Shown here one piece after another: positions 32,036 through 37,522 of a stretch of DNA of 37,522 nt. Made by a program: the position numbers and the translations under genes. The notes below the pieces were generated by a model. The model was not told where the DNA came from, searched no databases, and worked only from the letters and a program-made list of their open reading frames with translations. The DNA is from Flavobacteriaceae bacterium (GTDB taxonomy: Bacteria > Bacteroidota > Bacteroidia > Flavobacteriales > Weeksellaceae), in the NCBI GenBank assembly GCA_031276535.1, contig JAISMV010000053.1, forward strand, positions 1 to 37,522, read 5' to 3'. How positions within the stretch are numbered: the first letter of the stretch is position 1; each line of letters opens with the position of its first letter.

Positions 32036-35000
32036 ATCCACAATAGTAGAAATTATAATGAGTCGTTAGACCACTAGTCTACAAAATGAAGAATCTGAAT
32101 CTACAATAGTAGAAATTATAATGAGTCATTAGACGTTTCTTTCCCGTTTGAAGTTGTCCGGAATCTACAATAGTAGAAATTATAATGAGTCGTTAGACCT
32201 TGTTTTTTTTAAACAGTTTTTGCGCTATCTACAATAGTAGAAATTATAATGAGTCGTTAGACTTCACACGAACGCCACGAAATACCCCTTCATCTACAAT
32301 AGTAGAAATTATAATGAGTCATTAGACGACCTACATAGACACATTAACAGACGATATCTACAATAGTAGAAATTATAATGAGTCATTAGACTCGCTACAC
32401 CAGAAGACATTGTAGAGGACGTATCTACAATAGTAGAAATTATAATGAGTCATTAGACTACCAACATTATAGCGGTCGGTGAACTCATCTACAATAGTAG
32501 AAATTATAATGAGTCATTAGACTTTCTAAATTAATCATGGTTATTTTTTTATCTACAATAGTAGAAATTATAATGAGTCATTAGACGATGTGTCCGGGAA
32601 GTTTAGCTGTGAATCTACAATAGTAGAAATTATAATGAGTCATTAGACCCCCGTCAGCGGATTCAAACTCCAGTTCGATCTACAATAGTAGAAATTATAA
32701 TGAGTCATTAGACCTTCGTTCAGTTCGCATCAAAAACAGATATCTACAATAGTAGAAATTATAATGAGTCATTAGACTGTTGCAATTGCAAACATTTGAT
32801 AGTGATCTACAATAGTAGAAATTATAATGAGTCATTAGACTTACAAGCAGAAATCGATGCTAGCAATATCTACAATAGTAGAAATTATAATGAGTCATTA
32901 GACGTTCTTGAAGAATGGCAGGATGGTGATGAATCTACAATAGTAGAAATTATAATGAGTCATTAGACGTCTAGTGTACAGTACAGGGTCGGACTTGAAT
33001 CTACAATAGTAGAAATTATAATGAGTCATTAGACATTTTTATTTTTCTTGTTATTTTCATCTATCTACAATAGTAGAAATTATAATGAGTCATTAGACAC
33101 GTGCGTTGCGACCCATTCGGAATTGATCTACAATAGTAGAAATTATAATGAGTCATTAGACGTCAAAAAGGAGGCGGATTTTTATATCATTCAATCTACA
33201 ATAGTAGAAATTATAATGAGTCATTAGACCTTTGTAAGGCGGAATTAGTTTGGGCGCAATATCTACAATAGTAGAAATTATAATGAGTCATTAGACGTGC
33301 GGATTCATTCGATTGAGGATTCCGATCTACAATAGTAGAAATTATAATGAGTCATTAGACCCTGCAAAAACAGATGCACCGCCAATTATCTACAATAGTA
33401 GAAATTATAATGAGTCATTAGACATGGAACATATACCCATACTTGCCAAAGATCTACAATAGTAGAAATTATAATGAGTCATTAGACAAATTGTACTAAT
33501 TAACGAATCCCTGTTATCTACAATAGTAGAAATTATAATGAGTCATTAGACGTTCTGAAATTCATACTGACAGATTTGGATCTACAATAGTAGAAATTAT
33601 AATGAGTCATTAGACCCACAATGCGGAGTACCCTCCGTCGCTACCGTATCTACAATAGTAGAAATTATAATGAGTCATTAGACATCTGAAAATTCGATGT
33701 ATGGCCTGAATATCTACAATAGTAGAAATTATAATGAGTCATTAGACGTGCGGTTGGTCATCATCGCCTATTTATCTACAATAGTAGAAATTATAATGAG
33801 TCATTAGACATGCTTCATATTTTGTTCATGATTTTAATCTACAATAGTAGAAATTATAATGAGTCATTAGACATCAGTATTCATCAAACCGGAGAAATTA
33901 ATCTACAATAGTAGAAATTATAATGAGTCATTAGACATCTGTATGGCGGGGGTGTGTTCGTGGATCTACAATAGTAGAAATTATAATGAGTCATTAGACA
34001 TCGGAAGAGGTGCGGGAGCAGATGATATCTACAATAGTAGAAATTATAATGAGTCATTAGACTGGTTGAATATCGAAAGAACATTGAAAAATCTACAATA
34101 GTAGAAATTATAATGAGTCATTAGACCTTTACATTAATAAAAATCAAACATCATATCTACAATAGTAGAAATTATAATGAGTCATTAGACCTAAATGAAT
34201 AATTTCAGCTCTCAACCGGATCTACAATAGTAGAAATTATAATGAGTCATTAGACGCGCACCCCCCAACGCCCCCGCCATAGATCTACAATAGTAGAAAT
34301 TATAATGAGTCATTAGACTAGAAGATGTACTTAGTGTAAGGCTTTTATATCTACAATAGTAGAAATTATAATGAGTCATTAGACTAAATTTACATCTTCA
34401 TAGGTGAGAGTAAATCTACAATAGTAGAAATTATAATGAGTCATTAGACGGTATTTTCGGCGGATCAATCAACAGATCTACAATAGTAGAAATTATAATG
34501 AGTCATTAGACCAGCAATTCAACTGTTCGAGACGGACGAATCTACAATAGTAGAAATTATAATGAGTCATTAGACTCTATCTCATTAGATAGTTCAATAG
34601 CAATATCTACAATAGTAGAAATTATAATGAGTCATTAGACAAAGAGTTTCTTCTCCTACAACTGGTAATCTACAATAGTAGAAATTATAATGAGTCATTA
34701 GACTGAGAAGGCTTTCGCAGAATTTTTCGAATCTACAATAGTAGAAATTATAATGAGTCATTAGACTTTTAATGATAAAGAAATTGCCAAAAAACATCTA
34801 CAATAGTAGAAATTATAATGAGTCATTAGACCTAGGGAAGTTGCACCCTGCGTGGTTAATCTACAATAGTAGAAATTATAATGAGTCATTAGACAAAAAT
34901 CACTTGAGGGGTTAACTTTAGCTATCTACAATAGTAGAAATTATAATGAGTCATTAGACATAATGGCTGTGTCAGGCTGTCGCTGTCATCTACAATAGTA

Positions 35001-35598
35001 GAAATTATAATGAGTCATTAGACTTTTTTTTCATACTAATGACGGCGATAAATCTACAATAGTAGAAATTATAATGAGTCATTAGACGTATTCCTCGTTG
35101 GTCGGATTCTCTTCATCTACAATAGTAGAAATTATAATGAGTCATTAGACAGAATAGAACCCCTATGGAGGATATAACGGATCTACAATAGTAGAAATTA
35201 TAATGAGTCATTAGACCCGAAAATGATAGATAACGCACAACTAAATCTACAATAGTAGAAATTATAATGAGTCATTAGACGATCAAAAACACCTATAACT
35301 CTTTCTAAATCTACAATAGTAGAAATTATAATGAGTCATTAGACAAAATTTCAAACAAAAAGAAACTAATCATCTACAATAGTAGAAATTATAATGAGTC
35401 ATTAGACATCCCATTGTAACAACTTAAAAAATAGATCTACAATAGTAGAAATTATAATGAGTCATTAGACTACAAAAGAGCTACTTGGGTAGGCGCACCT
35501 ATCTACAATAGTAGAAATTATAATGAGTCATTAGACTGCCGACTTACCGGCATGAGCGAAGAATCTACAATAGTAGAAATTATAATGAGTCATTAGAC
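32036..35598 (-). CRISPR. Type V-A CRISPR array, 56 repeats / 55 spacers, transcribed on the minus strand
   Basis: 36-nt repeat (+ strand ATCTACAATAGTAGAAATTATAATGAGTCATTAGAC; crRNA sense GTCTAATGACTCATTATAATTTCTACTATTGTAGAT); spacers 26-32 nt, all different by eye; adjacent cas2-cas1-cas4; variant repeats only at the cas-distal end. Confidence 0.98.
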
Positions 35599-35779
35599 TC
35601 TAATCTTTTTTATTACTACAAAGGTAGTTGTTTTTCAGGATATTTGCAACTTTTCCTGAAAATTATTTTTCTCCCCCCTATATCATTATTTTTTTTATCC
35701 AGAAATTTCAAAGAACTTATTATAAACACTTTACACTTAAAACCCTACCATATCCTCAAAAAATAGAGACCGGGGTTTG
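35599..35779 (-). other. CRISPR leader region
   Basis: A/T-rich non-coding 181 bp between the first leader-proximal repeat and the cas2 stop. Confidence 0.8.
35619..35649 (-). promoter_or_regulatory. Predicted pre-crRNA promoter
   Basis: Minus strand TTG (35649-35647), 20-nt spacer, TACCTTTG (35626-35619): fits the Bacteroidota TTG / TAnnTTTG architecture, pointing into the array. Confidence 0.7.
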
Positions 35780-36055
35780 TCAGGTAAAATAAAGCAAATC
35801 TTGGTCGCGATGGATGGCATTACCGTATTTTACTGCTTTCTTCTCATCTGTTTCAAAAATAAAAACACTGTCGCCCCCACCGAAACGTTTGGCAAAGACC
35901 GATTCAATCTTTATCTTTAAAATATCTTGTACCCTTTTTGTATTATTGATCTCGAAAACAGAATACTGCAACCTTATACCTCCCTGTTTCACAAGCATCT
36001 TGGAAAAACGGGTTCGTAATTTATTATCAGATATATCGTAACTTACTACAAGCAT
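35780..36055 (-). CDS. cas2: CRISPR-associated endonuclease Cas2
   Basis: Start placed at M23 of the ORF track: MLVVSYDISDNKLRTRFSKMLVKQGGIRLQYSVFEI...; SYDISD catalytic motif; 11 nt after the cas1 stop. Confidence 0.95.
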   Translation of the reverse strand: MLVVSYDISDNKLRTRFSKMLVKQGGIRLQYSVFEINNTKRVQDILKIKIESVFAKRFGGGDSVFIFETDEKKAVKYGNAIHRDQDLLYFT

Positions 36056-36066
36056 ATTGTTTTTTA

Positions 36067-37038
36067 TTATTTGATTAAAAACCGTGGATAATTTACCGCA
36101 TCTTTTTGTTGCATAAAACAACGATAATATGTTTGTATATACTTAAAAACAGTTGACTTTTGTTCAATCAGCACATCATAAAACATTTTAGTATAATCTT
36201 TATTTTTTTCGTACTTCAAGACATATTCATTTTTGATAAGGTTAAAATCTTCTATTTTGCATTGCTGAAGATTAAAGGCTTTTCGCACCTGCTGGTCGAT
36301 TAGACAACGAAAGGGCTCCACCAGATCGCATATCAGCGACTTACGCTTGAACCATAGTTGATGATAGACTCCCCTATAGGGATCAAAGCCGAATAAACGG
36401 ACAAATGCCTCAATGTAATTGAATAAAAGAGTATATCCTATGTCGAGCGTGGAATTTATAGGGTCGGTTTTCACCCGCGGACAACGGGCTCTCCACGAAA
36501 ACGACTCAAAGTAGGAAGAGAAAAAAGCTGTTGATGCCTTCCCCTCTATCCCCATCACCGAATCATAAGTAGAAGCACAAGGAAGCATAAGCAATAAACC
36601 GTTGCACAGCTTTTTAGCATTTTCCATAGACTCCGATTTCAAGCGGGTTTTTTCCAATAACCGAATTTGATTTCTGATCTTGTTTTCTACCAATACTTTA
36701 GGGATTTGTAAATTCTCCTTTTCGTATTCATATTGTTTCTTTCGTAATAAAAAATTGGCTTCCGCCGTGATGGAAAAGAAAAATACAGGACGAAAATTAG
36801 GCTTCATCACAACCAAAGGAATACCATATCGGGTGCATTTATCTATCAATGGCGTGGTTATGGTAACATGTCCGATAACAAACAACGCCAGTATCTTCTG
36901 AAAGGGTAATTTAGTCAGAGTTTTCTTTTCTGCCGTATCTTCCAGCAAAAGCTCACCGCTCATCACTCGTAACGATCTGTTTTCGATACAATTAATAACG
37001 AATACAGACCTATATTCTATGTCTTTATGTGTAAACAT
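36067..37038 (-). CDS. cas1: CRISPR-associated endonuclease Cas1 (type V-A-like)
   Basis: 323 aa; MGIEGKASTAFFSSYF, GFDPYRGVYHQLWFKRKSLICDLVEPFR contain the expected Glu/His/Asp metal-site residues. Confidence 0.97.
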   Translation of the reverse strand: MFTHKDIEYRSVFVINCIENRSLRVMSGELLLEDTAEKKTLTKLPFQKILALFVIGHVTITTPLIDKCTRYGIPLVVMKPNFRPVFFFSITAEANFLLRKKQYEYEKENLQIPKVLVENKIRNQIRLLEKTRLKSESMENAKKLCNGLLLMLPCASTYDSVMGIEGKASTAFFSSYFESFSWRARCPRVKTDPINSTLDIGYTLLFNYIEAFVRLFGFDPYRGVYHQLWFKRKSLICDLVEPFRCLIDQQVRKAFNLQQCKIEDFNLIKNEYVLKYEKNKDYTKMFYDVLIEQKSTVFKYIQTYYRCFMQQKDAVNYPRFLIK

Positions 37039-37522
37039 TTTCTATTTCTGTTTTGTCGCACAAGCTGCAGTAGATACAGTGCCTGCATTTATTTTCATTC
37101 GTAAATATGGCAGCTTCCGGATTGAACTGTTTAAATTTCAGAATAAGTCTCACCAACTCGGCTTTTCCCTCTTCTGCAGGTATTTTAACAGGAAACGTCT
37201 TATTGGTTGCAATAGCGTAAAAAGCCAGCTTTTCAATTTCATATCCCATCTCAATCATGCAAAAATACTGCGCCCAGAGTTGGTAGATCTGCCCCTGATA
37301 AATAGTGTTTAACTGATATTTTCGTTCTATCAGCAATTTCTCCTTTACCTTGTAAATATCTATTTTCCCTGCAATGCCCAATTCGTCGCAATACACCGAC
37401 AACCCTGTGATCTCATCTTTCCGACTGCTATATTTCTTCTCATCAATTGCCGCATGGGCAGCTTTCCCCCGTGTTTGGGGAAAAGCATGAACCAAATCCT
37501 CATCACCTCCCGCATACACATT
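37025..37522 (-). CDS. cas4: CRISPR-associated exonuclease Cas4, 5' end outside the window
   Basis: TRGKAAHAAIDEKKYSSRKDEITGLSVYCDELGIAGKIDIYKVKEKLLIERKYQ...QIYQLWAQYFCMIEMGY; C-terminal CRHCIYCSLC; 14-nt overlap with cas1. The N-terminal portion is missing. Confidence 0.93.
   Translation of the reverse strand, partial: NVYAGGDEDLVHAFPQTRGKAAHAAIDEKKYSSRKDEITGLSVYCDELGIAGKIDIYKVKEKLLIERKYQLNTIYQGQIYQLWAQYFCMIEMGYEIEKLAFYAIATNKTFPVKIPAEEGKAELVRLILKFKQFNPEAAIFTNENKCRHCIYCSLCDKTEIENVYT

What the first reader, a model, noticed from the sequence alone, without database searches (positions are those of the whole stretch)
32036..35598. Large type V-A (Cas12a-type) CRISPR array with 55 unique spacers
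I count 56 36-nt repeats. In the sense of the cas genes each ends in AATTTCTACTATTGTAGAT, the conserved Cas12a 5' handle with a UAUU loop. Near-perfect repeat conservation, spacers of 26-32 nt and an intact leader suggest a recently active memory bank of unusual depth. The middle section of the repeat (GACTCATTATAA) may define a variant not catalogued for commonly used Cas12a orthologs; that part is unverified.
Basis: partly seen in the sequence, partly recalled or inferred. Interest (0 to 1): 0.8.

Follow-up and report, generated by a model that had tools for sequence, protein, structure and literature searches.

The report
Ordinary Cas12a-type CRISPR memory array
This is a real, long and well-kept bacterial CRISPR memory of the Cas12a kind (56 repeats, 55 different spacers); it is an ordinary member of a known family whose cutting enzyme lies beyond the end of the contig, and the one mildly unusual thing is a lone repeat-plus-guide gene elsewhere in the same genome.

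Summary
Window 32036-35598 has 56 direct repeats of 36 nt (53 identical) and 55 different spacers of 26-32 nt. Read on the minus strand, each repeat ends in AATTTCTACTATTGTAGAT; the most distal copy has one change in the handle. Next to the array lie a leader with a Bacteroidota-type promoter, intact cas2 and cas1 (PREFRAN, i.e. V-A), and a cas4 cut by the contig end. This is a type V-A adaptive-immunity locus, a new member of a known kind. The repeat's middle part varies freely among related V-A loci, and arrays of 50-56 repeats occur in three of them, so neither repeat variant nor depth is special. The effector is in none of the 152 contigs. Relatives carry Cas12a, or Cas12a plus Cas12a2 in tandem, so which nuclease uses this array is open. 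No protospacer was found, so PAM and targets are unknown. Outside the window, the same genome has one solitary repeat (contig C94:2835-2870) with an intact handle, a 23-30 nt guide and a strong terminator, far from the cas genes. It looks like a crRNA-like regulatory RNA (CreR). Four related loci carry such a solo repeat beside cas12a, with a seed match in the cas12a promoter. Here the target could not be shown.

The parts
32036..35598 (-). CRISPR array, 56 repeats of 36 nt and 55 unique spacers of 26-32 nt; newest end at 35598, oldest end with decayed repeats at 32036
35599..35779 (-). leader; Bacteroidota-type -7 box TACCTTTG at 35619-35626 with TTG 20 nt upstream of it (35647-35649)
   Evidence: sequence; motif scan; the promoter role is inferred from consensus
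35780..36055 (-). cas2 (91 aa; mechanical ORF reaches 36121, but the Cas2 domain begins at residue 23)
   Evidence: PADLOC Cas2 51.7 bits
36067..37038 (-). cas1, subtype PREFRAN (V-A), 323 aa, intact; nearest relative L003 at 81% identity over full length
   Evidence: (418 bits)
37025..37522 (-). cas4, subtype PREFRAN, N-terminal ~19 residues lost at the contig end; the effector gene would follow beyond 37522
   Evidence: 216 bits, profile 20-178 of 178; contig length

Best explanation
A type V-A CRISPR-Cas locus of a Flavobacteriales-like bacterium (order inferred, no name is given by the tools), probably gained by horizontal transfer. Cas4-Cas1-Cas2 add new spacers at the leader end (35598). 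The array is transcribed from the leader on the minus strand and cut before AAUUUCUAC into about 42-nt crRNAs by its own effector (Cas12a, possibly with or replaced by Cas12a2). The effector then cuts invading DNA, or for Cas12a2 is set off by invading RNA. Shown here: anatomy, orientation, gene identities, absence of the effector from the assembly. Inferred from the family: transcription, processing, interference.
For: Array statistics. cas1, cas4 and cas2 identities. Repeat fold with the 5-bp UCUAC/GUAGA stem. Same gene order and 3' handle in dozens of relatives. Relatives' effectors are Cas12a (TIGR04330), some with Cas12a2 (8d49, E 4e-237). Decayed repeats at the leader-distal end and identical repeats elsewhere fit polarised growth. 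Horizontal gain: Cas12a above the cut-off in only 1 of 325 genomes of the family and in none of the other genomes of the genus, while the Cas1 groups mostly with Bacteroidales and other MAGs.
Against: No effector in the 93.5% complete assembly, so present activity is not shown. No protospacer found in phages, plasmids, 325 family genomes, or by exact scans of seven spacers in viral contigs.
Confidence: 0.93

Rival explanations
1. The locus is an orphan: the effector gene was really lost, and array plus cas4-cas1-cas2 are remnants.
For: Neither Cas12a nor Cas12a2 in the assembly.
Against: The contig ends inside cas4, just where the effector begins in relatives, and the assembly is in 152 pieces and 93.5% complete. 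Repeats and cas genes show almost no decay, unlike a long-dead locus.
Confidence: 0.06
2. The effector that reads this array is Cas12a2, alone or beside Cas12a, so the memory acts by RNA-triggered abortive infection rather than, or besides, DNA cutting.
For: L025, L010 and L037 have Cas12a followed by a Cas12a2-type gene directly before cas4. Cas12a2 uses the same 3' repeat end, and tandem pairs sharing an array are published (PMC9811890). L025's Cas1 is among the nearest to the window's.
Against: The nearest relatives by Cas1, L003 and L030, have Cas12a, and most relatives have one effector ORF only.
Confidence: 0.25
3. The solitary repeat on contig C94 of the same genome is a trans-encoded CreR: a one-guide crRNA gene that lets the effector repress its own promoter.
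For: Repeat 33/36 identical to the array repeat with perfect handle, guide, then a 12-bp terminator stem and T-run; fold z -3.8. Four relatives have a solo repeat near cas12a whose guide seed recurs after TTTA in the cas12a promoter: L005 9 nt, L010 8 nt, L053 7 nt, L009 8 of 9. CreRs for V-A are published (PMC13131331, PMC12737573).
Against: The cas12a promoter of this organism is not in the assembly, so the target is untested. The guide's seed matches in the genome are at chance level (5 against 5; 39 against 37). The other regulatory-looking solos found sit beside cas12a.
Confidence: 0.5
4. The solitary repeat on C94 is only a leftover repeat of a decayed or misplaced array, without function.
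For: Absent from the loci recovered around the hmuY-like gene in other genomes of the genus. No clear Bacteroidota promoter: TAAATTTTG is one base off consensus. No target found.
Against: The handle is perfect while three bases in the dispensable middle changed, and a strong terminator follows at crRNA length. That terminator could also belong to the convergent hmuY-like gene.
Confidence: 0.35

Closest known systems
Type V-A (Cas12a/Cpf1, PREFRAN) CRISPR-Cas loci of Bacteroidota (L003, L025, L030 and others)
   Same: cas1, cas4, cas2 identities, gene order, 36-nt repeats mostly with a GTCTA start and the AATTTCTACTATTGTAGAT end, spacers of 26-32 nt
   Different: Effector not visible here because the contig ends; middle of the repeat differs, as it does between nearly all members
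Cas12a2 loci (type V nuclease, PMC9811890)
   Same: Shares the 3' repeat handle; occurs in tandem with Cas12a before cas4 in relatives
   Different: No Cas12a2 gene found in this assembly
CreR, crRNA-like cas-regulating RNA (for the solo repeat on C94 only)
   Same: Single repeat, guide, terminator; related loci show the promoter seed match
   Different: Not adjacent to cas genes; target not demonstrated
Racr, RNA anti-CRISPR of phages (PMC10651486; for the solo repeat only)
   Same: Solitary repeat unit
   Different: C94 neighbours are chromosomal (symporter, HmuY-like, TonB receptor, CobN), not phage genes

Membership tests
Type V-A CRISPR-Cas | Regular array with repeats ending in the V-A handle | tested here: met
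Type V-A CRISPR-Cas | cas1 and cas4 of the PREFRAN subtype, and cas2, beside the array | tested here: met
Type V-A CRISPR-Cas | Cas12a effector gene in the locus | tested here: inconclusive
   Contig ends inside cas4; no Cas12a in the rest of the assembly; present in most relatives
Type V-A CRISPR-Cas | Spacers match mobile elements next to a TTTV PAM | tested here: inconclusive
   No protospacers found
Type V-A CRISPR-Cas | crRNA processing at the handle | not testable with these tools
   Needs RNA data
CreR (solo repeat on C94) | Single handle plus guide outside the array, with a transcript end | tested here: met
   (terminator by sequence; transcription not shown)
CreR (solo repeat on C94) | Guide partly matches the cas promoter after a PAM | tested here: inconclusive
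   The promoter is missing from the assembly; met in relatives L005, L009, L010, L053
CreTA / CrePA (solo repeat on C94) | Guide targets the promoter of a neighbouring toxin gene | tested here: not met
   Best local seed no better than shuffled guides; no toxin-like small ORF

The most novel reading that the evidence does not exclude
The solitary repeat on C94 is a trans-encoded, stand-alone crRNA gene through which the V-A effector regulates a chromosomal gene rather than cas12a. One candidate is the class I/II aminotransferase at L109:1563-2744, whose -7 box lies just downstream of a TTTC plus 9-nt seed match.
Probability: 0.08. Interest if true: 0.6.

Novelty: new member of a known kind. 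Interest (0 to 1): 0.3.

Why it matters
The array adds a well-preserved V-A locus in a bacterial family where Cas12a is rare, with a Cas1 close to those of Bacteroidales MAGs. The solo repeat gives a testable case of a crRNA-like regulator encoded far from its cas genes.

Tried and rejected
The NUC-domain family (PF18510) rang nowhere, so it is uninformative. Spacer targets: array against 325 family genomes, phages and plasmids gave only chance-level pieces. The best, s48 with 3 mismatches in L069, has no TTTV PAM and is low-complexity. Exact 20-25-mers of seven spacers in viral contigs gave nothing. The solo/array repeat core in viral contigs gave nothing. Solo-guide targets in the own genome are at chance level, and no local target was found. 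Similarity of the solo's upstream to the array leader is weak (4% of random stretches score as well). In the Cas1 tree the row L068_G020 was a wrong ORF picked by my script and is to be ignored. One attempted Cas4 comparison failed on coordinates.

Full report
Observation. The array is real. Window 32036-35598 holds 56 repeats of 36 nt and 55 spacers, all different, 26-32 nt long with a mode of 28. Fifty-three repeats are identical to GTCTAATGACTCATTATAATTTCTACTATTGTAGAT (minus strand). The three that differ all lie among the four at the low-coordinate end, and the terminal copy also has a change inside the handle, as expected of the oldest end of an array. The handle pattern occurs 55 times in the window contig and once elsewhere in the whole assembly, with none for the reversed control.

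Surroundings. At the other end lies the leader, with TTG, 20 nt, then TACCTTTG, a Bacteroidota-type promoter by consensus (function inferred). Then follow cas2 (35780-36055), cas1 (36067-37038) and cas4 (37025 to the contig end), all on the minus strand. Cas1 and Cas4 score best against the PREFRAN (V-A) models at 418 and 216 bits. Cas4 lacks about 19 N-terminal residues because the contig ends at 37522. The rest of the window is ordinary chromosome (UvrB, DprA, peptidyl-prolyl isomerase, OstA/LptD_N-domain protein and others).

Effector. Relatives found by Cas1 keep the order effector, cas4, cas1, cas2, array. Their effectors are Cas12a (TIGR04330). L025, L010 and L037 have a second effector directly before cas4. 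In L025 it is Cas12a2 (best solved structure 8d49, E 4e-237), and those of L010 and L037 align with it at 20-25% identity. Neither Cas12a (the same family search found it in G020 and G044) nor Cas12a2 (no positive control) is in the assembly.

Is it special? The middle of the repeat differs between nearly all V-A loci compared, while the 5' GTCTA (in most) and the 3' handle stay. Arrays of 50 (L026), 51 (L007) and at least 56 repeats (L016, cut by its contig end) occur among relatives. Depth and repeat variant are therefore unremarkable. What is uncommon is the host: over-threshold Cas12a was found in 1 of 325 genomes of the window's family and in no other genome of its genus, while the Cas1 groups with Bacteroidales and other MAGs. 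Horizontal gain is the natural inference.

Spacer targets. None were found in family genomes, phages or plasmids, or by exact scans of seven spacers in viral contigs. PAM and targets remain unknown.

A lead outside the window. The one extra handle lies on contig C94 (L001:2835-2870). It is a solitary repeat, 33/36 identical to the array repeat, with an intact handle, followed by GAAAAAATAAGCACCAGAAAAGACTT and a 12-bp terminator stem with a T-run. Neighbours are a dicarboxylate-type symporter, HmuY-like and TonB-receptor genes, not phage genes. The loci recovered around the hmuY-like gene in other genomes of the genus lack it. Four relatives have a solo repeat near cas12a whose guide seed recurs after TTTA in the cas12a promoter (L005, L009, L010, L053), the design published as CreR for V-A (PMC13131331, PMC12737573). 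So the C94 element is probably a CreR-like RNA encoded in trans, but its target cannot be tested, because the effector promoter is missing and genome-wide seed matches are at chance level. A neighbouring-toxin (CreTA-like) arrangement was tested and not found.

Verdict. Confirmed, ordinary in kind: a new member of type V-A. The solo repeat is the part worth a follow-up.

Noticed in passing
G000:C94:2835-2931 (L001): Solitary V-A repeat with guide and strong terminator, far from the cas genes; probably a CreR-like regulatory RNA, possibly a relic.
   Followed up: partly
L025:2203-9443, L010:2165-9415, L037:830-8350 (also two large ORFs in L038): Tandem Cas12a plus Cas12a2 (or similar second effector) before cas4 in relatives' V-A loci.
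   Followed up: partly
L005:5162-5210, L009:5489-5535, L010:1551-1600, L053:1380-1440: Solo repeats near cas12a whose guide seeds recur after TTTA in the cas12a promoter (CreR design).
   Followed up: yes
L082 around 1501 (G351:C26:10752-10770): Exact 19-nt V-A handle AATTTCTACTGTTGTAGAT near the start of a gene just after a phage capsid gene, in a genome with V-A arrays; a phage solitary repeat (Racr) or an in-frame coincidence (LISTVVDE).
   Followed up: no
L001:2424-2672; copies on C109, C112, C8, C69, C61, C82 and others: Interspersed non-coding repeat family beside the solo repeat, many copies across this genome.
   Followed up: no
L005, L006, L009, L012, L015, L046: Closely related Cas1 in MAGs labelled Campylobacteraceae, Planctomycetaceae and Ignavibacteria: horizontal transfer or misbinned contigs.
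   Followed up: no
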